Shown here piece by piece: positions 26,400-40,392 of a stretch of DNA of 64,000 bases. The stretch is from Henriciella barbarensis (GTDB taxonomy: Bacteria; Pseudomonadota; Alphaproteobacteria; Caulobacterales; Hyphomonadaceae). Location: the NCBI RefSeq assembly GCF_003576345.1, contig NZ_QWGB01000014.1:230847-294846 (forward strand). The letters are read 5' to 3'. The notes below the pieces were generated by a model. It made no database searches, was not told the origin of the DNA, and was given only the letters and a program-made list of their open reading frames with translations. How positions within the stretch are numbered: position 1 is the stretch's first letter; the number at the start of each line of letters is the position of its first letter. Both the position numbers and the translations under genes were made by a program.

Positions 26400-26475
26400 G
26401 CCGGTATAGCTCAGCTGGTAGAGCACCTGATTTGTAATCAGGGGGTCGGGGGTTCAAGTCCCTCTGCCGGCACCA
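26400..26475 (+). tRNA. tRNA-Thr (anticodon UGU)
   Basis: The 76-base cloverleaf is complete. The acceptor strand GCCGGTA pairs with TGCCGGC, the D-arm is GCTCAGCTGGTAGAGC, the anticodon stem CCTGA/TCAGG encloses TTTGTAA with anticodon TGT, and the T-arm has GGTTCAAGTC. The 3' CCA is encoded. It is the integration target of the genomic island that follows: its last 16 bases plus TT are duplicated at 40375-40392. Confidence 0.95.
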
Positions 26476-26477
26476 TT
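26460..26477 (+). repeat. attL: left direct repeat of the genomic island
   Basis: CCCTCTGCCGGCACCATT covers the 3' end of tRNA-Thr plus two bases. An identical 18-base copy is at 40375-40392. Its position inside a tRNA 3' end and directly before a tyrosine integrase gene is the classical arrangement of an integrated island. Confidence 0.9.
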
Positions 26478-26714
26478 ATGACGCTCTCACGACGCTGAAA
26501 TCGCTGTGTTTATTGGGGTTTGGCAAATCCTTTTGATACACTAATGGGTACACAGCGATATGACATTCAGCGTTTCAGGCGAGGTCGCCTGCTGCTATTT
26601 CACAAAGCTCAGGACTAGCAGCTCACCCCTTCAAAGACATCTTGGTCGGTTCCTCGAAGTCTGCCTCAAGGCAACTTTGAAGACGGTTGACGTATGTGCG
26701 GAGGGTATTCGGAC

Positions 26715-28145
26715 ATGCTCATGAAGATAGACTACCTTCAGCGCCGTGGAGGCAAGCTTCGGTATCGCCGCCGCATCCCCGAGGACATCAGGCCCTACTT
26801 CGGCGGACGGGCTGAGATTGTTCAATCGCTAGGGCTCAATGCCGGGGACGAAGCAAAAGCCATTGCGCTAATCAAGCGAATTGACCGCGATATCTCGGTT
26901 CAGTTCCTCGAGGCGGCGAGAGCTGCTCATCGTAAAGAGGATCCTGCTGTCTTGGCAAAGCTTGCCGAGGAATGGGCGATTGCTAACAAGTTTCTAGGCG
27001 TTGACAGGTCTGGTTTGGAGAACCCCTACGATCCCAAGGGGCCATCCAATTATGATACTTGGCTGGACGGAACTATTCACGCAGCTGAACAGAAGATCGG
27101 CACAGAGCGCGAACTGGATCTGTCGGACCTGAGCCTTGAGGATCAGTATCGCATTGAAACGGTGAAGTCCGGTAAGCGCGTCACAGCGCCTCTCACAATC
27201 GAGACCGCCATTGAGACTTACGCTACCATGAGGCACGCGGGCGAGCTTCCAAAGGCAGAAAGCGCCGCGTTCAGCCAGCTTCGCGAATGGCTAGGAAAAT
27301 CTTCGACTCGCTACCTTTCTGAGTTGAGCCGCTCAATGGCGCGAGAGTTTCTGGGACATCTAGCGAATGCCCGGCAGCAGCGAGCAGGGACCATACGGCG
27401 TCGATTGAACTCTCTGAGGGCGCTGTGGAGCTTCTCGATCGACCACTATGAGCTGACCTTTGCGAACCCGTGGGCGCGCTTGGAGGTGCCTGTGGCTACG
27501 GAGCTGAAGCCCGTTGAAGAGCGCCTGCCATTTAATGCGGCGCATTGGGACAAGATCGATACCCTCCTCATGCAGGCTTCGGGCGACATCAGAGATGTTC
27601 TTCTCCTCCTAAAGTTTACGGGATGCCGCCCACTGGAGATTGCTGGACTGGCTGTAGACGACGTCGTGAGGATGGACGGCCTAACGTGTCTGCGTATCCG
27701 CAAGAATGAGTTCAGGCGCATCAAGAACCGCGAAAGCGATCGCTTGGTACCCTTGGTCGACCCACAAGCCGTATCGGTTATTGAGAGACGTCTGGGTGAA
27801 ACAGGATCGCTCTTCCCTGAAACTTTGCACGGAACCTCAAATCTCAGCGCGAGGCTGAACCATGCCATCCGAAAGGCAGGTATTCCTCAATCCTCACGAC
27901 TGACAGCTTACTCCATTCGTCACTCGGTTACTGAAGCGCTGCGCGTCGCGGGTGCACCTGATCATCACATGAAGGCCATACTCGGGCACGCCGATGCAAC
28001 CACGACCGCGCGGTACGGTGCTGGCGGTGTCGACGTTTCAGATCTCGCGCGTAGCTTACAGATGGCCCAAGCTCACCTTGGTAAGGTGCCACTCCACATT
28101 TATGAAGCTGAAGAGCTGCTCGATGTAGACGCTACGCCCATCTAG
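26715..28145 (+). CDS. Tyrosine-recombinase integrase of the island
   Basis: A 476-residue site-specific recombinase. The N-terminal part has the YLQRRGGKLRYRRRIPEDI arm-binding-like segment seen in many alphaproteobacterial island integrases, and a core-binding SAM-like domain lies near residues 180-260. The catalytic domain shows Arg305 (TGCRPLEI), SIRHSVTEAL with the second Arg and a His (the usual first His of box II is Tyr), ILGHADATTTARYG, and nucleophile Tyr434. ATG 26715 with GGAGG ten bases upstream is preferred. It reads away from the tRNA-Thr attachment site and should catalyse integration and excision of the 26460-40392 segment. Confidence 0.92.
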   Translation: MLMKIDYLQRRGGKLRYRRRIPEDIRPYFGGRAEIVQSLGLNAGDEAKAIALIKRIDRDISVQFLEAARAAHRKEDPAVLAKLAEEWAIANKFLGVDRSGLENPYDPKGPSNYDTWLDGTIHAAEQKIGTERELDLSDLSLEDQYRIETVKSGKRVTAPLTIETAIETYATMRHAGELPKAESAAFSQLREWLGKSSTRYLSELSRSMAREFLGHLANARQQRAGTIRRRLNSLRALWSFSIDHYELTFANPWARLEVPVATELKPVEERLPFNAAHWDKIDTLLMQASGDIRDVLLLLKFTGCRPLEIAGLAVDDVVRMDGLTCLRIRKNEFRRIKNRESDRLVPLVDPQAVSVIERRLGETGSLFPETLHGTSNLSARLNHAIRKAGIPQSSRLTAYSIRHSVTEALRVAGAPDHHMKAILGHADATTTARYGAGGVDVSDLARSLQMAQAHLGKVPLHIYEAEELLDVDATPI

Positions 28146-28368
28146 GAAAACCTGCGCTGATTGAAGGAGCGCGACCAAAAGTTGTCGTATAGGAGAAACC
28201 AGCTGGGTTACCTCGGTGGTTGCCGAGAACCCCGCGTAAAAGAGAAAGCGGCAGCGGCATCGATTTCTAGCGCAAAAATCTGAGCGCCGTCTAGATCTCG
28301 TGATCGTGTCGCTTTCCCCCCCTGGGGTAGGTGCTTGTTCGGCGACGTTCTGCTACCACTTTCCCACG

Positions 28369-28881
28369 ATGCCTGACTACCAGACCCTAATGCGTCCTGT
28401 GTTGCACTATGCCCGAGAGGGAGAGGTCCGCATCAATGACGCGGTCGACAAGATAGCGGATGAGTTTGAACTCTCTCCTGAAGAACGCGAGGAATTGCTT
28501 CCCAGTGGAAGGCAGACCGTCATCTACAATCGGACGCAATGGGCGAAGACATACCTGAAGCAGGCAGGGCTGGTTCGTGCGACCCGTCGTGCACACTATG
28601 AGCTAACTGATCGGGGCCGCGAGGCTTTGGATCAGTCTGCTCAACTTACCAACCGTCACTGTCTGAAGCAGTTCGCTGAGTTTCAAGATTTCCAGTCTCG
28701 ATCCAGATCAGAAGAGGACGTCGCAGAACAGACTGCTGAGCCGTTGGCAGGAACGCTCGATGAGACCCTGCAACGCGCTCACCGGCTCATCAATGAGAGC
28801 CTGCAGAGGACCTACAATATCGGCTGCCGCGACGAAGAGGTACTTTACCTCAAGAAGGTCGATGAGGACTTCTTCGAGTAA
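28369..28881 (+). CDS. Solo Mrr-type N-terminal winged-helix protein (catalytic domain absent)
   Basis: A 170-residue protein whose first about 90 residues match the Mrr N-terminal DNA-binding domain: MPDYQTLMRPVLHYA, LPSGRQTVIYNRTQWAKTYL and YELTDRGREALD are landmarks. In full Mrr restriction enzymes a PD-(D/E)XK catalytic domain follows; here the protein ends about 75 residues later at VDEDFFE, just where that domain would begin. No continuation appears in other frames. It may be a truncated remnant or a solo DNA-binding regulator. No clear ribosome binding site precedes ATG 28369; a GTG at 28300 is an alternative. Confidence 0.7.
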   Translation: MPDYQTLMRPVLHYAREGEVRINDAVDKIADEFELSPEEREELLPSGRQTVIYNRTQWAKTYLKQAGLVRATRRAHYELTDRGREALDQSAQLTNRHCLKQFAEFQDFQSRSRSEEDVAEQTAEPLAGTLDETLQRAHRLINESLQRTYNIGCRDEEVLYLKKVDEDFFE

Positions 28882-29332: not shown

Positions 29333-30598
29333 ATGACAAACCGAATGAAGACCAGGCCATGGTGCCCGGATACCGTACCTATGAGCATCGCAGCCGAGCA
29401 GCTCGTAGACTTAGCTCTAGAAGAACAGTTCCAAGCTCGACGGTCTCGTCAGGCTGATCAAGGAAAGGTTGCCCGACGCAGCAAGGGTCTCACCGCCACG
29501 AAGGAGCGTGCGTCTGTGGCAGCGATTACGCTGGATGTGCTGGCCCATCACCAAAGTGGTGACCGCGTCCCCTTCATCTTCAAACTTAACAAAACTTGGC
29601 TCTCCCGAGGCCCTGAGGAGCAGCTAGCTCGCAATCGCGCGGTGGGCGACCGAGTAAGAGACCTGGAGGAGGCAGGATGGCTCCTATGCAATAGGTCGTT
29701 CCGTTTCAACAACTGCTACATGACGCGGCTTCAGGCCGGTCCAAGGCTCATCGAGGCTTCAGAGGCCGTTGGCTTGCAGCTGAACGATATTGGATACGAA
29801 AGCGCTCTCCCAATCATCGAGCTGAAAGGCCCGAAGATCGGTGCTAGGAGAGAAACTCTCCCTCTGCCAAAGTCAGCCCGTGTCGACGCTTACCTAAGGC
29901 AGCTTGCGGAGCTTCAGGCCCATCTGAACAGCGCAAAACTGACAGAAGCAGGGTCTGGTAACTTCCGCATCCACACAAGTTGCCGGGTGGTTTCCCGAAG
30001 CTTTCTTGACGGCTCTCTGGAAAGAGGTGGGCGTCTGAATGGTTCTGCATTCTGGCTCTGCCTACCCAAGGAGCAACGTCGAGCTAACCTACGCATCTCC
30101 GGTGAACCAATCGCCGAAGTCGACATCCGGGCGGCAGTCCCCGCTATAGCGTACGCCTATGTGGGGCAGTCTCCCGACGGCGACCCTTATGCTCTCCCGC
30201 AAGCCCCGGACATACCTCGCGACGCCGTAAAGAAAGTCATGATGCAGATGTTCTGGTCGGAGATTAGCTCCAGATCGCGTCTACCCGACGAAGCCCGTCT
30301 GATGATACCAGACGCCTATACAGCGAAGCATGTCTACAGCCGGATCCGAGAGCGTAACGCACCCATCGCTTCGTTGTTGGGGCGCTCGGACCCCTTAGGT
30401 GCCAAGCTGATGTGGTTTGAGAGTGAGATCATCATGGAGGCGACGCTTCGGTGTTACACAGCGGGCATCCACGCGCTGCCGCTGCACGATGCTCTTTTGG
30501 TTCCCGCGAGTGCCGCTGAGCATGCCAAGGAAATCCTGCAGGCAGCCTTCGTCGACCGGATGAGGAAAACTCCTGAGGTGACGATAGAGCGGTTCTAG
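29333..30598 (+). CDS. Protein with family-A DNA polymerase-like palm motifs (island-encoded)
   Basis: A 421-residue protein. The C-terminal half contains three segments in the order and spacing of polymerase A motifs: EVDIRAAVPAIAYA with Asp264 (motif A-like), RDAVKKVMMQMFW with Arg296 and Lys300 (motif B, O-helix-like), and LPLHDALLVP with His385-Asp386 (motif C-like, compare VHDE). Both metal-binding aspartates are therefore present. There is no 3'-5' exonuclease domain, and the N-terminal half includes a winged-helix-like RNRAVGDRVRDLEEAGWLL. An element-encoded mini-polymerase, primase-polymerase or replication protein is plausible but inferred. AGGA lies just before the start. Confidence 0.55.
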   Translation: MTNRMKTRPWCPDTVPMSIAAEQLVDLALEEQFQARRSRQADQGKVARRSKGLTATKERASVAAITLDVLAHHQSGDRVPFIFKLNKTWLSRGPEEQLARNRAVGDRVRDLEEAGWLLCNRSFRFNNCYMTRLQAGPRLIEASEAVGLQLNDIGYESALPIIELKGPKIGARRETLPLPKSARVDAYLRQLAELQAHLNSAKLTEAGSGNFRIHTSCRVVSRSFLDGSLERGGRLNGSAFWLCLPKEQRRANLRISGEPIAEVDIRAAVPAIAYAYVGQSPDGDPYALPQAPDIPRDAVKKVMMQMFWSEISSRSRLPDEARLMIPDAYTAKHVYSRIRERNAPIASLLGRSDPLGAKLMWFESEIIMEATLRCYTAGIHALPLHDALLVPASAAEHAKEILQAAFVDRMRKTPEVTIERF

Positions 30599-30614: not shown

Positions 30615-30809
30615 TCATCGCCCTTCTTCGCTGGCGCGGTGATTGAGGCGCTTTTCGATGTCCAGCAAGCGGTTGGTCTTCTCGCTGGAAAATCGGATGC
30701 ATATGCCGTCCACGTCGGGCAAGCCTGAAGCATCGGCGACACTTTGGGCAGCTCCAATCGCTTCCTCGTACTCCTGTAGTTCGGCCTCAGTGACCAATTT
30801 GGATGCCAT
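30615..30809 (-). CDS. Small hypothetical protein at the end of the defence cassette
   Basis: A 64-residue acidic, helical protein (LVTEAELQEYEEAIGAAQ) with no recognised domain and no membrane segment. An AGGAGA site nine bases before ATG 30809 supports it as a gene; an overlapping longer frame on the same strand has no such support. It follows the SIR2-like gene by 52 bases on the same strand and is probably the last cistron. An accessory or inhibitor-type role would be speculation. Confidence 0.55.
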   Translation of the reverse strand: MASKLVTEAELQEYEEAIGAAQSVADASGLPDVDGICIRFSSEKTNRLLDIEKRLNHRASEEGR

Positions 30810-30861
30810 CTAGTTTCGTCTCCTGGTTGTGGTGGGCACTGGGTGCACAGGTGCTGTCTGA

Positions 30862-31749
30862 CTACGCTTCCCACGCAGTGCTCTCATAGATGTCTCGATG
30901 GCTGCCGACGCGAACGACCGCCATTCCGAGTGCCTTCAAAAACGGGAAGCGGTGTCGGAGTCGCTCGCTGTCCCGCGCTACATACCAGAGGGGGCGTTTA
31001 ATATCAGGATACTTTCGATGCAGTCTGGCACGTTCTAGGAATAGCCAGCGCATAAAGGTCTCGTCCTTGTGAAAGCCAAAGCCGATCACGGCCATCGGAT
31101 TGAAGAAGAAAGCCTCCAGCCACGACCTTTGCCCAGGCCAGGTCTCTGACTTGCCTTCAACGTAGTTGTGCAAGGCCCGTCTGTTCTTGATCCAGCTCTC
31201 AATCCGGCTGACCGATCCCATATAGTCGACCAGGCCAAGCCTGATGCTTTGCTTGTACCGGATGAAACCATGCGGATGCCAAACCGCGAAGTTGCGGCGG
31301 ACATTCTTGACCTGATTGTATGCGAAATGCGCCCGGAAGGGATAGACATAGACATTCTCGTCTACTCCAAAGAACTCAAGACCGCTTGCCTCTCCAAGAA
31401 GTGCATCGAAGTTCATGGAGAGTATCGGGGTTTGGTTCGACGATGCCCACTTGATGACGCGAGCGTGCACCTCTGAGGGATGCCACAGCTCCATCATCGA
31501 CCGGACTTCGCCCTTCAGGTCTTCTCGACTTTCGTTTGGGGCAGCAAGGTCGAGAATGTCGTACCGCTCCGTGTTCGACATTTCTCTAAGCTCAGAAGTT
31601 GAGAGGATCAGATTTCGGCGCTTTGCAAGCCGGTTGAGAAGATCCTCCCAACTAGCGTTCCCAGAGTCTGCATACTGATTGATGCCATTGCCAAGTAGAA
31701 GGGCAGGCGGGTCATCTTGGTTAAGCACATCATCAAGCGGTGTTGCCAT
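30862..31749 (-). CDS. SIR2-like domain protein (probable NAD-dependent defence effector)
   Basis: A 295-residue protein with the SIR2-like fold motifs of defence-associated NADases: LLLGNGIN near residue 18 (nucleotide-binding loop), SMNFD with Asn113 (equivalent to the TTNYD Asn), WHPHGFI with His158 and His160 (catalytic His candidate), and VIGFGFHKDETFMRWLF (the GxGxxD-type segment). Standalone SIR2-like proteins in defence islands deplete NAD+ on phage infection; activity here is inferred. A TTG four codons upstream is an alternative start. It is 22 bases downstream of the B3-like gene and in the same orientation as the hsd genes. Confidence 0.78.
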   Translation of the reverse strand: MATPLDDVLNQDDPPALLLGNGINQYADSGNASWEDLLNRLAKRRNLILSTSELREMSNTERYDILDLAAPNESREDLKGEVRSMMELWHPSEVHARVIKWASSNQTPILSMNFDALLGEASGLEFFGVDENVYVYPFRAHFAYNQVKNVRRNFAVWHPHGFIRYKQSIRLGLVDYMGSVSRIESWIKNRRALHNYVEGKSETWPGQRSWLEAFFFNPMAVIGFGFHKDETFMRWLFLERARLHRKYPDIKRPLWYVARDSERLRHRFPFLKALGMAVVRVGSHRDIYESTAWEA

Positions 31750-31771
31750 AAGTCTGTGCAATCCTCGTGTA

Positions 31772-32098
31772 TCAGCTTAGCTTCCGGATCTCGTATTCGC
31801 GCTCAACCAGCCACGTGAAAAGCACGAAGTCGCCCTCGTGTACTTTTGCTGCGGCAAAGAACGCACCCACCTCGCTGCGGCAACGCAGGAAGAGCTTGTC
31901 TTCGGGTAGGTCAGTCTGGACCGTGCCGCCTGGTATGAAGGTTACGCTAATCTCACGGCCAGGAGAGGCGGCGTTCGTTCCGCCTATAGCGTCATCCGGG
32001 ATGAGACTAAGAGCGCTGCGCAGATATAAGTGATTGTTACGGATGTTGCCGCCGGTCACTTCAATCACTTTCGCGTCGTAGGTCTTTGCCTGTACCAT
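31772..32098 (-). CDS. Small B3-like (pseudobarrel) DNA-binding-type protein
   Basis: A 108-residue beta-rich protein: NNHLYLRSALSLIPDDAIGG, VTFIPGGTVQTDL, LFLRCRSEVGAFF and EGDFVLFTW succeed one another. This resembles small proteins of the restriction-endonuclease effector/plant B3 DNA-binding fold that are found beside DNA methylases; the resemblance is by eye and needs a profile search. It begins after a GGGAGA site 27 bases downstream of the PD-(D/E)XK gene and ends 22 bases before the SIR2-like gene. It could supply target or modified-DNA recognition to one of its neighbours. Confidence 0.55.
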   Translation of the reverse strand: MVQAKTYDAKVIEVTGGNIRNNHLYLRSALSLIPDDAIGGTNAASPGREISVTFIPGGTVQTDLPEDKLFLRCRSEVGAFFAAAKVHEGDFVLFTWLVEREYEIRKLS

Positions 32099-32125
32099 TT
32101 ATTCTCCCTGAGGTCGCGTCGTGCG

Positions 32126-33007
32126 CTACTGCACGATTTTCACTGTGACGCCCAGTTTCCGCGCGAGCGGCTTCAGGCGCGATGGGAGCGGTTGCTCTAT
32201 GGCGAGCACGACTACGACATTCGTTTCAATGCCGTTAGCTTCCCTCATCGCCTCATACACCGCGCGGTACTTGACGCATTGATAGATGCCGCGCTCCAAG
32301 TCGTGTTCATTTGAGCGACGTGATTTCACTTCAACAAGGCGTATTTCTGCTTTGCCTATGATGCACACATCGACCACATCGCCGGACTTCAGCGAAACCT
32401 CCGGCTCAGGTTTGAGCCAACTCGGCTTGGCGTCGACGAGCGCGGGATTAGCGATAATTCGCTCTTTCAGAGCCTTGTGCTCGGGGCTCTCTGCGTCTCC
32501 GCCTCGGGGCTGACCAGGCGAAGTTGATCGGTCGATCTCAGTCCCTGTCTCAGGTGCCGTCCGGGCTGTGTCAGGCAGCGACGTACCAAATAGAGTCTCT
32601 GCGATCGCGTCCCATTCCTCGAAGGCGTAAACCTCTGCAAGGGCGCGATTGATTAGGTCTTGCCTAAGGCTCTCGCTTCTTTGGATTTGGCTCAATCGCT
32701 TGTTGTAGCGAGCAGCCAGGAACTGATCGGCACCCCCGCTTGCTATTCCGGAACTCTGGTTCACTGCGAGCAGGTTCAGCAGCGGCGCATCTGGAAAGCT
32801 CTCCAGAATGCGTTCCATCAAGGCTCCAACCGGATGACCGATCTGGGTAGAGAAGATGCGGCCCTCAATTTTGAGATCGTGCTCCAATTTCTCAGCGATC
32901 TGTCCGTAAGTGATGGTCGCGTGTTCCTGAGCTGCGGCGACCAAGTAGGCCATTGTATGGGGAAGGCCGTCTGACGTGAGCTGGCTTAGGGTGTATCTTG
33001 GCATCAT
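32126..33007 (-). CDS. PD-(D/E)XK nuclease with Ada/MGMT-like N-terminal domain
   Basis: A 293-residue protein. The C-terminal part has the nuclease core VDVCIIGK ... RLVEVKSRR, with Asp213, Glu226 and Lys228 forming the D...ExK triad, after a GDVVD strand. The N-terminal about 100 residues (TITYGQIAEKL ... IGHPVGALMERILESFPDAP ... NQSSGIASGG) recall the winged-helix part of alkyltransferase-like proteins but lack the PCHR active Cys, so a role in DNA or lesion recognition is possible. The stop of hsdS overlaps its ATGATG start, showing tight coupling to the type I system. The nuclease core is well supported; the N-terminal reading is tentative. Confidence 0.68.
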   Translation of the reverse strand: MMPRYTLSQLTSDGLPHTMAYLVAAAQEHATITYGQIAEKLEHDLKIEGRIFSTQIGHPVGALMERILESFPDAPLLNLLAVNQSSGIASGGADQFLAARYNKRLSQIQRSESLRQDLINRALAEVYAFEEWDAIAETLFGTSLPDTARTAPETGTEIDRSTSPGQPRGGDAESPEHKALKERIIANPALVDAKPSWLKPEPEVSLKSGDVVDVCIIGKAEIRLVEVKSRRSNEHDLERGIYQCVKYRAVYEAMREANGIETNVVVVLAIEQPLPSRLKPLARKLGVTVKIVQ

Positions 33008-34440
33008 GCCGGTTCCTTATGGAGGCGCTTCAGGAGCTCGCTAGCGGGTTCATCCTTTGGGTCCTGCGGGACCAGCTCGCCGCGAAAGGCCTTGGCGAGG
33101 ACGGCGCGGTCCAGTTTGTCGAGACGCCCACGGGAGGAGCGTGCGGCATTCGCCAGTGTGTCGATTTGGGTTAGAGCCTCCTCGACCCGGCGCACGATCA
33201 CTTCTTGTTCCTCAGGCGGAGGCAGAGCGATGTGCATGGCACGAACTTCAGGGAAGTAGATAGTGGTGTGTGTTGTTCCCTTGCCGAACCGCCGGATAGC
33301 GTCGCCCTCGGCCATCAGCACGTACATCAAGTACTTGGGAACGAGGAGTTCGCCGCATGTCCAGGTCACGAAGTCCTGGCTCGTGGCCATCTCTTCACCC
33401 ATGATGAAGACGTATCCTACTGAAGCGGTGCGAGAGAGGCAGACAGTGCCAGCGGGCAGCAGTCGGGACGCGGAGTTATCCAATCCGGCCTGACTCACCG
33501 TCTGCAGCGTCTCGTAGATTGTCTGCCCATGATGGAGCCGGGCGTCTTTGATGCCGATCCATTTGATGCCGCCATGCCAGTACTCGGGCTTCGAGCGGCT
33601 GGGAGTGTGCCCAGTTTCCTGGCGTGCCAGGTGGTTCAAAGCGGCCCATTGCCAGCCTTCGGGTAGTTCTCTCTCAGGTGCGTTGAGCGCCAAACCCCCG
33701 ATACCGTCGACCACGCTGTCTGACGCGACGCGCCCGCCGCGTGGCTGTTCGGGCGGAGTGTAGGTTTGCAAAAGCTCAGGCACTGACAAAGGATGATTGT
33801 TTGTGCGCCAGTCGGTTGTGAGTTTTCCACGAGCGCCCGCCAAGAGCACAGCCTGCCGATACTGCTCGACCAGGGTTTCGACGCGGGTGAGGGCGGTGCG
33901 GGCTTCGGTGGAGGCGGTGGTCAGGCTGTCCAGCTTCTCCACGATCCGCTTCTGCTCGGCGAGTGGGGGGAGGGGTACACGGAATTTCCTAACGTCTGCC
34001 AAGTTCAATCTTGGGACGGCAGTGCCGAGTCTGGACCCGCCGTATTGATCGGTAGCGAGAGGCGACTTCAGAAAGTGCGTGGCGAAGTCGGCGTCCAGCA
34101 GTTGTTTATCAAAACGAATACGGCATGAAGACTGAGTGATGTTTCCACCCGACAGCCACTCTGGTACTCGTGCAATCTTTCCGATGGTCCCGACGATTGA
34201 GAGGATTATGTCACCTGTCTGGAGCGTCGATCGCCGGTATCTGTCTGCGATTTCTGGTGAGGTTCGTCTTATGCTGGCGCGGTCAATTCTGCCCGTTTGA
34301 TCTATCTCCGTAGGCCGGACATAGGGAACGCCGTCCGATACGTTGTCTTTTGGCTGAAGGATGCCATAAATAATCGGCGCATCGCCCTCACAGCAGTTTG
34401 CTAAGTCCGTTTCACTCCAATTGCTTGGCAGCCCACTCAT
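33004..34440 (-). CDS. hsdS: Type I restriction-modification specificity subunit
   Basis: A 478-residue HsdS with two target-recognition domains (about 1-160 and 250-420). Each is followed by a conserved helical spacer; VPLPPLAEQKRIVEKLDSLT and ALPPPEEQEVIVRRVEEALT are the classical TRD-end/coil junctions. It determines the bipartite DNA target and assembles with HsdM and HsdR. Four-base overlaps join it to hsdM upstream (ATGA at 34437-34440) and to the nuclease gene downstream. Both halves look intact. The recognition sequence cannot be deduced. Confidence 0.93.
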   Translation of the reverse strand: MSGLPSNWSETDLANCCEGDAPIIYGILQPKDNVSDGVPYVRPTEIDQTGRIDRASIRRTSPEIADRYRRSTLQTGDIILSIVGTIGKIARVPEWLSGGNITQSSCRIRFDKQLLDADFATHFLKSPLATDQYGGSRLGTAVPRLNLADVRKFRVPLPPLAEQKRIVEKLDSLTTASTEARTALTRVETLVEQYRQAVLLAGARGKLTTDWRTNNHPLSVPELLQTYTPPEQPRGGRVASDSVVDGIGGLALNAPERELPEGWQWAALNHLARQETGHTPSRSKPEYWHGGIKWIGIKDARLHHGQTIYETLQTVSQAGLDNSASRLLPAGTVCLSRTASVGYVFIMGEEMATSQDFVTWTCGELLVPKYLMYVLMAEGDAIRRFGKGTTHTTIYFPEVRAMHIALPPPEEQEVIVRRVEEALTQIDTLANAARSSRGRLDKLDRAVLAKAFRGELVPQDPKDEPASELLKRLHKEPA

Positions 34441-35882
34441 TCCGCTGCGACGAGCGCGTCCTCGTCCTCCCCTTCAAGCTCTGCCGTCAGCGTCTCGATT
34501 GCCGCCATGGCTATCTGCAACTCGCTCATGATGGCAGCTGCGATGTCTTCGGGCTCGCCGATCTCTTCGGTTTCGCTCTCGTCGCGTAGCCAGGTGATGT
34601 CGAGATTGTCCCCACGCGCCTCAATCGCCTCGCGGGTAAAGCAACGGAAACGGCCTTCTTCGCCTTCATCTTGGCGAGCCTCTGCGGCGTAGGCTTCCAC
34701 GAAGGGCTTCAGGTGCTCTGGCGTCAGCGGCGCTGTCTTGCCGAAGGCGGGCATGTTGGCGCGCATGTCATAGACCCAGACTTCCTGCGTGGTCTTCGAT
34801 GCGCCCTCATCGGCTTTCTCAAGGAAGATAACATTGGTCTTCACGCCCTGCGCATAGAAGATGCCAGTCGGCAGGCGAAGAATGGTATGGAGGTTGGCTT
34901 CATCCATGATCTTCTGGCGAAGCTGTTTGCCCTTGCCATCTTCGAAAAGGACATTGTCCGGCACAACGATGGCGGCGCGCCCGCCCGGCTTCAGAGAGCG
35001 CAGGCAGTGCTCTACGAAGGGAAGCTGGTAAGAGCTCACTGAGTGAGTGATGGTCAGGTCATCGCGCGTAGGCCGCCCGCCCGCGGGGCCAAAGGGCGGA
35101 TTGGTGAGGATGAGGTCTGCCTTGGACAGCGAAGCGCCCGCAGGAGACAGGGAGTCAGCCAGTAGGACATGGTCAGAGTCGACGCCGTGCAGGTGCAGGT
35201 TCATCAGGAGAAGGCGGTAGGTGCCTGGCACGTTTTCGATGCCGTGATAGGCGTTGCGCGTCTGGAAGACCTGTTGCTTCTCTGTGAGGTCCAGATAGTC
35301 GTCGGTCTTCCTGCGAATGTGCGTATCAGCAGCGATGATGAAGCCGCCTGTGCCGAGGGCGGGGTCTTGGATGACCTCACCGGGCTGCGGGTCCATCAGC
35401 TCAACCATAGCCTCGATCAGCACGCGCGGCGTGAAGTACTGACCCGCGCCTTTCTTGGTCTCTTCTGCGTTCTTCTGGAGGAGGCCTTCATAGAGGTCCC
35501 CGAAGCTGTCGCGGTCGGCAGAGTACCAGTCCAGCGCGTCGATAGAGGAGACAAGTTTGGCGAGGTTCACAGGTTCGCGTAGGAAGGTGGACGCATTGTC
35601 AAAGATCGCAGAGACACGGCGAGGAAGCTTGTTTTCAGGGTCGCCAAGCTCCGTCAGCAGGCGGCGGTAGTGCGTGAGCTGGTCGATGCCTTCGCGCGCT
35701 GTAATGGTGCTCCAGCGATATTTCTCAGGCAGAAAGTCATCTTCGCGGCCCTGCTCATGCATCATCTTGAGGAAGAGTAGATAGGTGAGCTCTGTGACGT
35801 ATTGCTGATAGGTGATGCCGTCCTTGCGGAGGATCGCACAGAGCCGCCACAGCTTGTTCACGAGATCGGAGGAGGGGTTCAT
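34437..35882 (-). CDS. hsdM: Type I restriction-modification DNA methyltransferase subunit
   Basis: A 481-residue N6-adenine methyltransferase. An N-terminal helical HsdM domain (about 1-130) is followed by the catalytic domain with the SAM-binding motif DPALGTGGFI from Asp173 and the catalytic NPPF at Asn261. With HsdS it methylates the host target. AAGGATA precedes the start. It lies 22 bases after hsdR and overlaps hsdS. Length and motifs are normal. Confidence 0.94.
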   Translation of the reverse strand: MNPSSDLVNKLWRLCAILRKDGITYQQYVTELTYLLFLKMMHEQGREDDFLPEKYRWSTITAREGIDQLTHYRRLLTELGDPENKLPRRVSAIFDNASTFLREPVNLAKLVSSIDALDWYSADRDSFGDLYEGLLQKNAEETKKGAGQYFTPRVLIEAMVELMDPQPGEVIQDPALGTGGFIIAADTHIRRKTDDYLDLTEKQQVFQTRNAYHGIENVPGTYRLLLMNLHLHGVDSDHVLLADSLSPAGASLSKADLILTNPPFGPAGGRPTRDDLTITHSVSSYQLPFVEHCLRSLKPGGRAAIVVPDNVLFEDGKGKQLRQKIMDEANLHTILRLPTGIFYAQGVKTNVIFLEKADEGASKTTQEVWVYDMRANMPAFGKTAPLTPEHLKPFVEAYAAEARQDEGEEGRFRCFTREAIEARGDNLDITWLRDESETEEIGEPEDIAAAIMSELQIAMAAIETLTAELEGEDEDALVAAE

Positions 35883-35904: not shown

Positions 35905-38900
35905 CTAGCCTGTATCCTGGGCAGACCAGACAGCTTCGTTGATGTCACCAAGAACAGACTCGAGGTCACCGTCAAAGGCCTGATTGCTGCGGTTCCAGCC
36001 GCCGAAATGCTGGAAAGCAGGCGCTGACAGCGTCTCGCGGTCTGCCACGGGGTGTTCCTTGAGCGCGTTTCCGATGCGCCTTAGCCATTGGCGCTGCTCT
36101 GATGTCCATGATCGCGACTGGGTCAAGCGCTGGATGGCATTCTCCACCCGCGTCTCATAAGGCACCAGAGGGTCGCCCAGAGCGGCTTGACGGACGAAGC
36201 CCAGAATATGTGCGGCGATATCGGCATTGCGCGCACGGCCATAGGCGGCCCGCAGCATGGGATAGGAGAAGTTCTCCTCATCCAACGCCAGGGCAAGCTC
36301 CTTGAGGCTTTGACGAGTCAACTCTCTAGGTCTCTGCGTTGCGGCTATCATGCCCGCAGAAGCATTGAGATTGTCGCGGATGTAGCGCTCGAAGGCTTCG
36401 ATATAGTCCTCTGGCGTCAAATCGTTTTTGAAGATGTCCTCAATCGCGATGAGCTCATCCTCATGCTCGGAGATGGGTACGCCGGGGCGTCGGCCTTTGG
36501 CGGGCGGCTCATCCAGGGTGGCGATGATCCTCGGGTGCGCCTCAAGATAGGCTGCCAGCTCTGCCGATGACTTCTTCTGGAGCTTGTCGGCGAGTGCTGC
36601 CGCGTTCTCGCCAGTGACGTCCTCAAGCGTTTCTGCCTGCTTGTCTGTGAGCCTTGGCACCCTGCGGCGTACCTTCGCCACGATCTGCTCCTGGACGCGC
36701 TTGCGGCTTGCCTCATCGGGCGCGTTGGCCAGGTCGGCTGCGAGCTGCGTGAAGCTGAGGTGGGGGTTGGTCACGACGGGCCGCATGTCCGTCATGGACT
36801 GCAGGTTGTCGTAGAGGTCGACTGCGTCGAAGATGCGGAACTCGGTCTTGTTGATCTCTGGGCAGAGCCTCGTCGCACGCCCGATCATCTGATCGTAGAG
36901 GATGCGGCTGTTCACGCGGCGCACGAAGACGAGGTTCGTGATTTTCGGGATGTCGACGCCAGTGCTGAGCATATCGACGGTGACAACGTATTTGGGGCGC
37001 GCGTCGCTGCGATAGCGCCGGATCGCGTCTCCAGCACGGTCAGTCTGCCCGGTGATCTTCATGACCAGGTCGTTTGGGACGGCATCCTCGCCATACTCTG
37101 CCTTTAGCTCCTCGTTCAACAAGCGGACCAGAAGATCGGCATGGTCGTCTCGTGCCGCGAAGATCAGCGTCTTGCCGTCTTCATCTGGGGGCACCTCTGA
37201 TGCAATCGTTTGGGCAACCACTCTGTTGAACGGTTCCGTGTAGACGCGCTTGTTAAACTGCTGCACCTCGAAGCCCATGTCGTCAGGTAGTGTCGCGGTG
37301 TCGATCACGCCCGTCGAAGGGTCGAGGATAGAGACCTCTTCGCCGCCCTTGAACGTGATGCCAGCAGTGTTGAGCGCCGTGACAATCCGTTTCGGGGGCA
37401 GGTGATCAGTCAGGTAGCCGTCGACCACGGCCTGACGGTAGCTGTAGCGATAGACAGGTGCGCCGAAGATTTCTGTCGTCTGTAGAGCGGGGGTCGCAGT
37501 CAGACCCACTTTGACGGCGTCGAAGTAGTCGAGCACGCGGCGATACTTCGAGAGATAGTCCTCGGTGGATCTGAACTCGATATCTTCATCGCTGAGCTCC
37601 CCATCCAGTGCGTAGCCCCGGTGGGCTTCATCGACGATCACCAGGTCATACATGCCGGGTGTTGGTCTACCCTCAGAGCTTCTGAAGACCCTCGCCACCA
37701 TGGACTGCACAGTCGCAACGTGAACGCGTGTATCCTCGTCTGGCATGCCATCGTCCGGTCCAATGACACTGTAGGTGTCAGTGAACTTGAGGAGGCCTTC
37801 AAGCTCCGTGTTCGCTAGGCCGTCCTTGGTCTGCTCAGCGAGGGCGTTGCGGTCGACAAGGAAGAGGATGCGCCTGAAGCGGCGGTGCTTGAGCGCTCGG
37901 TACATGAGCGCGATCGCCATACGGGTCTTCCCCGTGCCAGTTGCCATACTGATCAGGGCGGTATCGAGACCCTTTCCTATGGCCTCTTCGATCGCGGCGA
38001 TTGCGTCGCGCTGATAGTAGCGAAGGTTCGCATAGTCGAACGGCTCTTCAGCGAGCGCCTTCTCGCTCATCTGGGGTTCCTGCTCGAGCTTGCTGAGCAA
38101 ATCTCCCGGGGAATGCCACGCAGGAAGATCGCGTGGATGGTTCATTGAGGAGCGAAGGTCCCGGTACCAGATGCCGGACTTTTCCTTGAGCTGCTTGACG
38201 TGTGACCGCCCATTGGTGGCGAAGGCGAAGGGCACCTTGAAGGTTGGCGAGAAGTCACCCTTCGGGTCACGCGGCGCGCCCTCATATGGGGCACCGTCGA
38301 CAAGGTGTGGATAATCAAGATCGCGCGCGTACCGCTCAGCCTGCGCCAGCACGCCGGGGACGTCTTTGCTCTTTCGTTTTGCCTCGATCACGCCAACGCA
38401 GGTCTCGCCAACGAAGAGGGCATAGTCGACGGGTCCGGACTTTGTGGGCCATTCAGCTATGGCCATGCTCTGACCGGGCTGGGGTCGGGTCCCTCGGCTG
38501 TAACGCAAGTTCCTATGGTCCGCGCGCCACCCAGCGTCCTCCAGGGCAGAGTCGATGAGGTCTCTTGTGTCAGCCTCATTGAGCTCTACCTGGTCAGCCG
38601 CCTGGCTCGCCGCCTGACTTAGCTGAGCCTCCGTCGGCGCACCCTCAGATAGGGCCTCAGTGCGTAGTCTTGCGAGTTCTGCCTGAAGCTCTTCGAGCTC
38701 TACAGTCTGGTTCTTTGCCGCTTCAAGGAGACGCTCACGATCCCGTTTGATGGCATCAAGGCGGACAGAGCTGACGGCTTGTGCCTTCTGGGCAGCGCTG
38801 AGTTCCTCTGTGAGCTCTCCCAGCTGCGCCCTGAGGTCCTCGGCAGGGTCTTCGGTCGGGGGCGGGATAAACCGCAGTGACGGGTCGACGGTGATCTTGC

Positions 38901-39270
38901 GGTAGGCGCGTACGTACCACAGCGAAACCTTCTGGGCGAAGCGCAGGCAGGCCAGGGCATCATTAGCTGTCGACTTCAGCTCGTGGTTCGCCTCGTTGCC
39001 CCGCTTGCGGATGAAGTGAAGCATATCCGCGATCGACTTCGGCAAAAGCCCGTTGTTCTGAAGCGCGTTGAGCAGGTCGACCTGCTTGCTTGGGAAGTCC
39101 TGCGTCCGGTTGGAGTGGGCTGCGATCTGCTTGGCAACGGACTCACCGAACTGGCGTGACTTTAGCAGCGACGTGTTCGGGTCCTGCGTGAACAGAGCCT
39201 CCGCCAGAGAAGTCAGCCGATAGAGCAGGGGTTCATGCCCCTCCAGGAATGCAAAGTTGACGCTCTCCAT
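35905..39270 (-). CDS. hsdR: Type I restriction endonuclease subunit (EcoEI-like HsdR)
   Basis: A 1121-residue motor-nuclease. A DUF4145-like N-terminal domain (about 20-110) and a coiled coil (about 130-205) come first. Next is the HSDR_N nuclease with Asp282 and Glu296-Ala-Lys298, then a superfamily 2 helicase with ATGTGKT (Lys448) and DEAH (547-550), GLTATP and IGRATR, and a C-terminal EcoEI_R-type domain. It translocates DNA and cleaves unmethylated foreign DNA with HsdM and HsdS. It is first in the hsdRMS run and only 76 bases downstream of the GIY-YIG gene. It appears intact. Confidence 0.94.
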   Translation of the reverse strand: MESVNFAFLEGHEPLLYRLTSLAEALFTQDPNTSLLKSRQFGESVAKQIAAHSNRTQDFPSKQVDLLNALQNNGLLPKSIADMLHFIRKRGNEANHELKSTANDALACLRFAQKVSLWYVRAYRKITVDPSLRFIPPPTEDPAEDLRAQLGELTEELSAAQKAQAVSSVRLDAIKRDRERLLEAAKNQTVELEELQAELARLRTEALSEGAPTEAQLSQAASQAADQVELNEADTRDLIDSALEDAGWRADHRNLRYSRGTRPQPGQSMAIAEWPTKSGPVDYALFVGETCVGVIEAKRKSKDVPGVLAQAERYARDLDYPHLVDGAPYEGAPRDPKGDFSPTFKVPFAFATNGRSHVKQLKEKSGIWYRDLRSSMNHPRDLPAWHSPGDLLSKLEQEPQMSEKALAEEPFDYANLRYYQRDAIAAIEEAIGKGLDTALISMATGTGKTRMAIALMYRALKHRRFRRILFLVDRNALAEQTKDGLANTELEGLLKFTDTYSVIGPDDGMPDEDTRVHVATVQSMVARVFRSSEGRPTPGMYDLVIVDEAHRGYALDGELSDEDIEFRSTEDYLSKYRRVLDYFDAVKVGLTATPALQTTEIFGAPVYRYSYRQAVVDGYLTDHLPPKRIVTALNTAGITFKGGEEVSILDPSTGVIDTATLPDDMGFEVQQFNKRVYTEPFNRVVAQTIASEVPPDEDGKTLIFAARDDHADLLVRLLNEELKAEYGEDAVPNDLVMKITGQTDRAGDAIRRYRSDARPKYVVTVDMLSTGVDIPKITNLVFVRRVNSRILYDQMIGRATRLCPEINKTEFRIFDAVDLYDNLQSMTDMRPVVTNPHLSFTQLAADLANAPDEASRKRVQEQIVAKVRRRVPRLTDKQAETLEDVTGENAAALADKLQKKSSAELAAYLEAHPRIIATLDEPPAKGRRPGVPISEHEDELIAIEDIFKNDLTPEDYIEAFERYIRDNLNASAGMIAATQRPRELTRQSLKELALALDEENFSYPMLRAAYGRARNADIAAHILGFVRQAALGDPLVPYETRVENAIQRLTQSRSWTSEQRQWLRRIGNALKEHPVADRETLSAPAFQHFGGWNRSNQAFDGDLESVLGDINEAVWSAQDTG

Positions 39271-39346: not shown

Positions 39347-40195
39347 TCAGCTTATTTCTTGCCACTCACCATTCGCCGAGCCCCGAATTATGCGAAAGAG
39401 ATGCTCGCCGTCGAACTCGACAGCAATCCAGTTGCCGCGTTGCCAGTATCCACGTGCAGCATCAATTATGTGCGACCACCTAGCATTGTTAAGCCCGCTA
39501 TTGGCGATGGGCTGACCATCAAATTTCCACTTGTTTTGATCGGCGGGCATCCACCTTTCAATCTTGAAGACTCCTTTGCTAAGCCCTCGATCTAGGCCAA
39601 CGGCCACGGCGTCTGAGCGGTTTCGCCAAGTCTCACCGATGCCCCAATCGCCTCGTGTGGCAGCGTAGACGTCGTTGTCCGCCACTTCTTGCAATGCGTT
39701 TTGAATTGGAAAGACATACACTGAGGAAATCGCGTTAGCAGGATCTACCGGTCTAGCTCTCAGAGTCTCTAGCTCGGTGGGCAAAACAGCGCCATGAACT
39801 GCAGCATGATTGCCCGCCCGAGCGTTCAGTAGCTGCCCGTTCTGAGACGCATTGATGCCGCTCATCACTGCAGCCTCAGCGATCTCGGCCTCTCTCTGTG
39901 AGGCGTATCCGCGGCTGACGATTTGCCAATCAACGTACTCGTCTGCATGCCAGATCTCTGCAATGCGCCGCGTCTTGCTGGTATGTTCCTTCGGGTCGCC
40001 GGGGTCCTCCGCCTTCAGCGCTTCATTCAGATGGGATACAGCGCGGGCGCCAACGCCTTCCCCAACGTAGAACACCTTGTTGTCCCTCGGGTCACGTAGA
40101 AGGTAAACATAATGCTTTAGATGTTCGGCTGAGAGTTCGTTAAGAAGCTTCTCATGGTTCTCAATGAGCCCCCTCAGACTTTGTATCTCATGCAT
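39347..40195 (-). CDS. GIY-YIG nuclease-domain protein
   Basis: A 282-residue protein. The N-terminal half is a GIY-YIG domain: HYVYLLRDP and KVFYVGEGVGARAVSH give the GIY and YIG strands (the second as YVGEG), and REAEIAEAAVMSGI contains the probable catalytic Glu, as in LEM-3-like members. The second half (about 150-282), with a WSHIIDAARGYWQRGN strand pattern, is unrecognised. GGAGG eight bases before ATG 40195 argues for this start rather than the ATG at 40210. It lies at the island's right edge, upstream of hsdR on the same strand; it may belong to the defence set or be a separate island gene. Confidence 0.75.
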   Translation of the reverse strand: MHEIQSLRGLIENHEKLLNELSAEHLKHYVYLLRDPRDNKVFYVGEGVGARAVSHLNEALKAEDPGDPKEHTSKTRRIAEIWHADEYVDWQIVSRGYASQREAEIAEAAVMSGINASQNGQLLNARAGNHAAVHGAVLPTELETLRARPVDPANAISSVYVFPIQNALQEVADNDVYAATRGDWGIGETWRNRSDAVAVGLDRGLSKGVFKIERWMPADQNKWKFDGQPIANSGLNNARWSHIIDAARGYWQRGNWIAVEFDGEHLFRIIRGSANGEWQEIS

Positions 40196-40374
40196 GCTGA
40201 CAGCCTCCATTCATCGCCTTGATTAGATAGTTGTCGAATGTCAGCTGAAGAGCAACTTGCTCACCACAAATCGATACACGGGAGCTTGACCATCGGCACA
40301 CTTAGTCATACTTCGAAGACGCCAAATCCCAGTATTCACGGGCGATTGCAGTCCATGAGGCTTTCCGCTGGTCG

Positions 40375-40392
40375 CCCTCTGCCGGCACCATT
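40375..40392 (+). repeat. attR: right direct repeat of the genomic island
   Basis: CCCTCTGCCGGCACCATT is an exact copy of the tRNA-Thr 3' end at 26460-26477. The bases upstream of it do not continue the tRNA, so this is a duplicated fragment, not a second gene. It marks the right boundary of the roughly 14 kb island, and excision would leave one intact tRNA-Thr. Confidence 0.9.

What the first reader, a model, noticed from the sequence alone, without database searches (positions are those of the whole stretch)
30615..34440. Candidate composite defence module: hsdS, nuclease, B3-like protein, SIR2-like protein and small protein in one tight run
The nuclease gene overlaps the hsdS stop, and the B3-like and SIR2-like genes follow at 27 and 22 bases on the same strand. 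A classical type I system needs only R, M and S. Three conserved-looking extra proteins (DNA recognition, DNA cutting, NAD-depleting fold) are therefore translationally joined to it. One hypothesis is a two-stage system in which failure or blockage of the type I enzyme triggers the SIR2-like effector.
Basis: partly seen in the sequence, partly recalled or inferred. Interest (0 to 1): 0.75.

Follow-up and report, generated by a model that had tools for sequence, protein, structure and literature searches.

The report
Type I restriction operon with add-ons
A mobile DNA element carries a classical bacterial restriction system with extra defence genes (a DNA-cutting protein, a small probable DNA-reading protein and an NAD-destroying-type protein) joined to its end; such add-ons are a known habit of these systems, and this trio was not seen together in the relatives compared.

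Summary
The anatomy is as described: hsdS, nuclease, B3-like, SIR2-like and a 64-aa ORF form one minus-strand run (gaps -4, 27, 22, 52), preceded by a GIY-YIG gene, hsdR and hsdM. All sit on a ~13.9-kb element in tRNA-Thr; one congener shows the exact empty site, five more lack the element. The nuclease has a PD-(D/E)XK fold (NucS/EndoMS-like); the SIR2-like model, of low confidence, matches defence SIR2 proteins. The proposed composite module is not conserved: no locus outside the own genome holds two of the three families (90 distinct nuclease, 6 B3-like, 8 SIR2 places). No SIR2 place has an hsd gene nearby. At least 8 of 80 nuclease loci are in restriction operons. The B3-like family stands out: 4 of 6 places lie in restriction loci (McrBC twice, type I with GmrSD, Hma). 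Best reading: a type I scaffold with exchangeable embedded cargo, here a nuclease-B3 pair that may restrict modified DNA, plus an independent SIR2 effector. Embedded defence genes in type I loci, Sir2 and REase-fold included, are in print. Novelty: new variant of a known kind; the B3-like reader idea is the fresh part.

The parts
26400..26475 (+). tRNA-Thr (TGT) gene, integration site
   Evidence: ARAGORN
26460..26477 (+). attL-like 18-bp repeat (last 16 bases of tRNA-Thr plus two)
   Evidence: exact repeat
26694..28145 (+). integrase of the element
   Evidence: phrog_1 integrase 3.4e-30
28300..28881 (+). Mrr N-terminal domain only (Mrr remnant)
   Evidence: PF14338 3.7e-31; complete Mrr relative directly after hsdS in L124
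29333..30598 (+). 421-aa protein, function unknown
   Evidence: phrog_4756 4.5e-17
30615..30809 (-). 64-aa ORF, no relatives in the fetched loci
30862..31749 (-). single-domain SIR2-like protein
   Evidence: PF13289 1.2e-4; conserved GNGI, NF and WH..G positions; folds
31772..32098 (-). B3-like small protein, possibly DNA binding
32126..33007 (-). PD-(D/E)XK nuclease: helical N-terminal part, NucS/EndoMS-like C-terminal domain about 175-293
33004..34440 (-). hsdS
   Evidence: PF01420 2e-31
34437..35882 (-). hsdM
   Evidence: PF02384 5.9e-72
35905..39270 (-). hsdR (NF008521; EcoEI_R_C; DUF4145 near the N-terminus)
39347..40210 (-). GIY-YIG nuclease, PD-T4-3-like
   Evidence: PF22945 1.9e-13; PADLOC 2.2e-20
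40375..40392 (+). attR-like 18-bp repeat
   Evidence: empty site in L157

Best explanation
This is a type I restriction-modification operon on a tRNA-Thr integrative element, with exchangeable defence cargo joined downstream of hsdS. HsdRMS would methylate self DNA and cut unmodified invaders (inferred from family). The nuclease and the B3-like protein most likely act as a pair that restricts DNA which the type I enzyme misses, for instance modified phage DNA, the B3-like protein reading the DNA and the nuclease cutting it (inferred). The SIR2-like protein is an independent effector that would destroy NAD+ when it senses infection (fold supported, activity inferred). They are coupled to hsdS (overlap and short gaps shown, transcript not tested) and travel together (element shown); they need not act as one machine.
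For: Element borders and empty site. Operons with related HsdM carry different extra genes: GmrSD_N + ASCH::B3 (L108), Mrr (L124), 8xMP, DUF4357 and AAA_21 (L128), AAA_21 (L133, L134), AAA_15 (L135), GmrSD (L136). Nuclease in restriction operons in at least 8 of 80 genome loci: L018, L020, L022, L077 share the REase-nuclease-methylase order of plasmid locus L004, L021 has the same methylase in two pieces; L034 and L044 adjoin HsdM, L071 a ResIII protein. B3-like: 4 of 6 distinct places in restriction loci: after McrB-like and McrC genes (L107, PF10117 3.7e-72), B3::DUF4268 directly before McrB-like and McrC genes (L167, 6.3e-67), after GmrSD_N in a type I operon and fused to ASCH (L108), inside an Hma locus (L013). 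Folds. Embedding is an established pattern: TgvAB in a V. cholerae type I operon (PMC11411939), DarTG2 (PMC12255303), passages seen.
Against: No relative shows the nuclease and the B3-like gene side by side, so their pairing rests on adjacency in one genome. The B3::DUF4268 fusion would help only if DUF4268 is nuclease-like, which I recall but did not test, and its DUF4268 part shows no detectable similarity to the nuclease family (hhalign probability 0.1). Two of six B3 places (L106, L109) have no restriction gene as neighbour. The B3 sample is small and the B3 label weak. 45 of 80 nuclease loci have no same-strand ORF of 90 aa or more within about 60 bases, so much of the family seems to work outside such operons. 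Three loci with fairly close HsdM (L121, L127, L130) carry no extra gene in the cluster.
Confidence: 0.55

Rival explanations
1. Two-stage guardian system: the SIR2-like protein (or the nuclease) is held inactive by the type I complex and released when a phage anti-restriction factor blocks it, as PrrC is.
For: SIR2 fold match. Coupling to hsdS. PrrC precedent, and Sir2 genes linked to type I loci reported in PMC3506569 (passages).
Against: None of 8 distinct SIR2 places (L009-L012, L104, L105, L140, L141) has an hsd-like ORF in the fetched stretch (an earlier smaller search had one weak HsdM-like local match far from the SIR2 gene in L010, E 1.7e-4), so no conserved hsd partner is visible. 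No pair recurs.
Confidence: 0.13
2. Passive stacking: unrelated defence genes collected on one mobile element, co-transcribed by accident, each with its own trigger and no cooperation.
For: Families occur singly in unrelated contexts; variable cargo in related hsd operons.
Against: The 4-base hsdS overlap and 22-27-base gaps suggest selected co-expression; B3-like places are in restriction loci more often (4 of 6) than nuclease loci (8 of 80, a lower bound; Fisher p 0.003) or SIR2 places (0 of 8; p 0.015).
Confidence: 0.27
3. The trio plus hsdRMS is a new obligate multi-gene system whose other members are simply rare.
For: Translational coupling in this genome.
Against: No pair in the relatives compared; the nuclease scan found 150 genome relatives, of which only the best 80 were fetched, none with B3-like or SIR2-like genes in the fetched flanks.
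Confidence: 0.05

Closest known systems
TgvAB embedded in the type I R-M operon of V. cholerae VPI-2 (PMC11411939, passages seen, some from the abstract)
   Same: Two extra genes inside a type I operon on a genomic island, giving a second restriction activity against modified DNA.
   Different: TgvAB are GmrSD-type proteins (DUF262/DUF1524) within the cluster; here a PD-(D/E)XK nuclease and a B3-like protein follow hsdS, plus SIR2, and no activity is shown.
PrrC / EcoprrI (PMC12707154 and PMC3506569, passages seen)
   Same: Effector gene within a type I locus, possible backup when restriction fails.
   Different: PrrC is an anticodon nuclease whose hsd linkage is described as conserved; the SIR2 relatives here show no hsd linkage.
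KomC of the Kongming system and other defence SIR2 proteins (structures 9xvc, 8zsf)
   Same: SIR2 domain over the whole protein, best fold match Z 11.7, rmsd 3.9, 231 aligned.
   Different: 14 % identity; none of the 9 island proteins scanned matched a HAM1/ITPase family as a KomB partner would.
Hma, McrBC and GmrSD-bearing loci with B3-like proteins (L013, L107, L167, L108)
   Same: B3-like domain joined to restriction genes, once fused to ASCH and once next to a weak ASCH hit.
   Different: In the window the neighbours are a NucS-like nuclease and SIR2.
EVE/ASCH readers near type I R-M (PMC7641849, passages seen)
   Same: Small reader-type domains stand by type I and COG1743/DUF499 systems.
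   Different: Another domain family; whether that paper treats B3 was not looked up.

Membership tests
Type I restriction-modification system | hsdR, hsdM and hsdS in one run | tested here: met
Type I restriction-modification system | sequence-specific methylation and restriction | not testable with these tools
   needs a methylome and a plasmid restriction assay
PD-(D/E)XK nuclease | conserved acidic and (D/E)XK residues and fold | tested here: met
   E173, D210, D213, E226, K228 invariant in 31 rows; fold match Z 13.9 to 2vld and 13.8 to EndoMS 5gke
SIR2 NADase (defence type) | SIR2 fold over the whole protein | tested here: met
   Foldseek rows 1-6 SIR2 proteins, best E 6.2e-3; rows 1-48 SIR2-bearing (some by recall), Z 11.7 down to 6.0, next row 5.5; model pLDDT only 56
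SIR2 NADase (defence type) | conserved Asn and His of the active site | tested here: met
   N112 and H157 (113 and 158 counting the Met) invariant in a 5-row and a 3-row alignment, window included; their catalytic role is recalled
SIR2 NADase (defence type) | NAD+ hydrolysis | not testable with these tools
   -
B3 DNA-binding domain | B3 profile match or fold | tested here: inconclusive
   1 of 6 members at E 0.093; no relevant PDB sequence hit; fold not predicted
PrrC-type guardian | effector conservatively linked to hsd genes | tested here: not met
   SIR2: 0 of 8 distinct places
[quoted passage not shown]
   inferred from B3-like neighbours McrBC and GmrSD
tRNA-integrated mobile element | integrase, tRNA-end repeat on both sides, empty site in a relative | tested here: met

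The most novel reading that the evidence does not exclude
The B3-like small protein is an undescribed DNA-reading module that different restriction systems (type I, McrBC, GmrSD-bearing, Hma) plug in, free or fused to ASCH or DUF4268; here it arms a NucS-like nuclease to make a new modification-dependent restriction enzyme nested in a type I operon.
Probability: 0.25. Interest if true: 0.62.

Novelty: new variant of a known kind. Interest (0 to 1): 0.42.

Why it matters
It shows a type I operon as a carrier for exchangeable second-line defence genes, and it points to two families without a Pfam, NCBIfam or PADLOC match here (the nuclease and the B3-like protein) that recur inside restriction loci. 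If the B3-like protein reads modified or particular DNA, it would be a shared sensor across restriction types, testable with one binding assay.

Tried and rejected
Composite conserved module: rejected, no co-occurring pair. Nuclease-DUF4268 homology as support for the pair: tested, not found. PDB sequence profiles: B3, 31-row nuclease and 5-row SIR2 alignments gave only unrelated-looking hits; the 4-row SIR2 profile gave weak hits to 7uxt and FAM118B among unrelated ones. Viral scans: single SIR2 query none, B3 alignments none, SIR2 alignment 2 loci, nuclease 6 loci. B3 in phages: none. Further B3 queries in plasmids gave the same two records. Genome samples: nuclease in 1 of 101 relatives and SIR2 in 1 of 385 class genomes, both the own genome. 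Promoter- and terminator-like sites are no more frequent than in shuffles, so transcript ends are not settled. The helical N-terminal part of the nuclease was barely tested. Literature searches; their listings (titles and starts of abstracts) did not show this gene set.
Full report
Observation. The five ORFs exist as described: hsdS 34440-33004, nuclease 33007-32126, B3-like 32098-31772, SIR2-like 31749-30862, 64-aa ORF 30809-30615, all on the minus strand with gaps -4, 27, 22 and 52. The run begins earlier, with a GIY-YIG gene (40210-39347), hsdR and hsdM (gaps 76, 22 and -4). HsdR matches NCBIfam NF008521 and carries a DUF4145 match near its N-terminus.

Element. tRNA-Thr lies at 26400-26475. 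Its last 16 bases plus two are repeated exactly at 40375-40392. An integrase starts at 26694. Of 26 genomes searched with the right flank, 9 matched, the own one included; stretches of 6 of the 8 others were fetched. In G004 (L157) left and right flank meet at one copy of the repeat at 84-85 % identity: an exact empty site. In the other five (L158-L162) both flanks lie beside tRNA-Thr, roughly 0.15 to 2.5 kb apart by the alignment ends, and the island sequence has no match. So all that is described is one inserted element of about 13.9 kb.

Proteins. Nuclease: no match in Pfam, PADLOC or NCBIfam at E 1; 31-row alignment with invariant E173, D210, D213, E226, K228; model pLDDT 90; residues about 175-293 match EndoMS (Foldseek 1.9e-4) and the Pyrococcus repair endonuclease 2vld (Z 13.9, rmsd 2.0, 105 aligned), which I recall as NucS. 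SIR2-like: PF13289 in 4 of 5 aligned members, best 1.1e-4; model weak (pLDDT 56, three sequences). No Foldseek match reaches E 0.001, but rows 1-6 (E 6e-3 to 4e-2) are SIR2 proteins and the next row is E 0.25; in the second look rows 1-48 are SIR2-bearing proteins, some so named by recall, KomC first (Z 11.7), falling to 6.0, where Z below 8 alone means little. B3-like: only PF02362 at 0.093 in 1 of 6 members.

Co-occurrence. The nuclease alignment found 150 genome relatives, of which the best 80 were fetched, plus 5 plasmid loci and 6 viral loci. One search covered the ORFs of all 167 fetched loci with profiles of the three families and with the window's proteins. Outside the own genome it found the nuclease family in 91 loci (90 distinct), the B3-like family in 14 loci (6 distinct places) and the SIR2 family in 10 loci (8 distinct places, L012 being a fragment). 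No locus holds two of the families. Flanks reach 10 kb or so at most and several contigs are short, so distant co-residence is not excluded. No SIR2 locus shows an hsd-like ORF at E 1e-3; a smaller search gave one weak local HsdM-like match in L010, over 5 kb from the SIR2 gene (E 1.7e-4). L009's SIR2 gene lies before DUF3883, DUF6088 and AbiEii genes; in L140 it follows ORFs that I read as AbiEi/AbiEii from recall. The B3 and SIR2 profiles were built from some of the very members counted.

Nuclease contexts. 45 of 80 have no same-strand ORF of at least 90 aa within about 60 bases on either side. At least 8 of 80 are in restriction operons; only 10 neighbours were scanned with Pfam. L018, L020, L022 and L077 have the REase-nuclease-methylase order of plasmid locus L004 (annotated BPTD_3080 family endonuclease and DNA methyltransferase; 54-57 % identity of the REases, 47-56 % of the methylases); L021 has the methylase in two pieces (66 and 83 %); L034 and L044 adjoin HsdM and L071 a ResIII protein. 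L026 and L074 have an hsd-like ORF at a distance.

B3 contexts. Found in 4 of 349 phylum genomes besides the own one, one new genome among 66 of the order, and two records of Bradyrhizobium barranii plasmids. L107: after an AAA_5 (McrB-like, my label) and a McrC gene (PF10117 3.7e-72), with hsdR and hsdM further on. L167: B3::DUF4268 between a helicase-nuclease gene and AAA_5 plus McrC genes. L108: hsdR-hsdM-hsdS-GmrSD_N-[ASCH::B3]. L013: inside an Hma locus (HmaA and HmaB E 0), next to a weak ASCH hit (0.007, below its cut-off). L106: between ORFs that I recognise as Gap and Pgk. L109: neighbours without Pfam match. That is 4 of 6, against 8 of 80 nuclease loci (Fisher p 0.003) and 0 of 8 SIR2 places (p 0.015); the nuclease figure is a lower bound, no single blind rule was used, and the numbers are small.

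Cargo in related hsd operons. Of 20 loci examined, 19 gave an hsdM; L139 did not. By that ORF table, extra ORFs lie in the cluster in L108, L123, L124, L125, L126, L128, L129, L131, L132, L133, L135 and L136 (12 of 19). L121, L127 and L130 have none, L122 is broken by a transposase-like ORF, the extra ORFs of L137 and L138 look like chance, and in L134 the cluster breaks at a split hsdS with an AAA_21 gene directly after the second part. Identified cargo: GmrSD (L108, L136), Mrr (L124), AAA_21 (L128, L133, L134), AAA_15 (L135), 8xMP (L128), DUF4357 (L128, L132). L133-L138 have more distant HsdM (39-48 % identity), and L135-L138 another gene order. The window holds an Mrr N-terminal remnant on the other strand, with relatives in L121 and L124, the one in L124 directly after hsdS: a hint of cargo turnover.

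Literature. PMC3506569 (passages) states that many type I and III R-M systems encompass Sir2 and REase-fold proteins among predicted toxins, and proposes that immunity components restrain linked toxins. PMC11411939, PMC12255303, PMC12707154 and PMC7641849, all passages only, describe embedded or adjacent genes in type I loci. So the kind is known; this exact set was in none of the listings.

Verdict. Real operon on a real element, one well-supported and one fairly supported fold, a combination not found elsewhere in the relatives compared. The best reading is a type I scaffold with embedded cargo; the nuclease-B3 pair as a modification-dependent restriction unit is an inference, and the two-stage SIR2 model remains possible but unsupported.

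Noticed in passing
window 28300-28881: Mrr N-terminal domain without its catalytic domain; a complete Mrr relative sits directly after hsdS in Acetobacter plasmid locus L124.
   Followed up: partly
window 39347-40210: GIY-YIG nuclease related to PADLOC PD-T4-3 starts the same-strand run, 76 bases before hsdR.
   Followed up: partly
window 29333-30598: 421-aa protein (phrog_4756) with a relative near another type I locus in L132; possibly a mobile-element protein.
   Followed up: no
L004, L018, L020, L021, L022, L077: Recurrent restriction operon in which the window's nuclease family lies between or beside a BPTD_3080-type endonuclease and its methylase.
   Followed up: yes
L167:3357-10933: Helicase-nuclease, B3::DUF4268 fusion, AAA_5 and McrC genes in one run: an McrBC-type locus with a B3-like component.
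   Followed up: partly
L142, L144-L147: The nuclease family appears in viral contigs without B3-like or SIR2-like genes.
   Followed up: no
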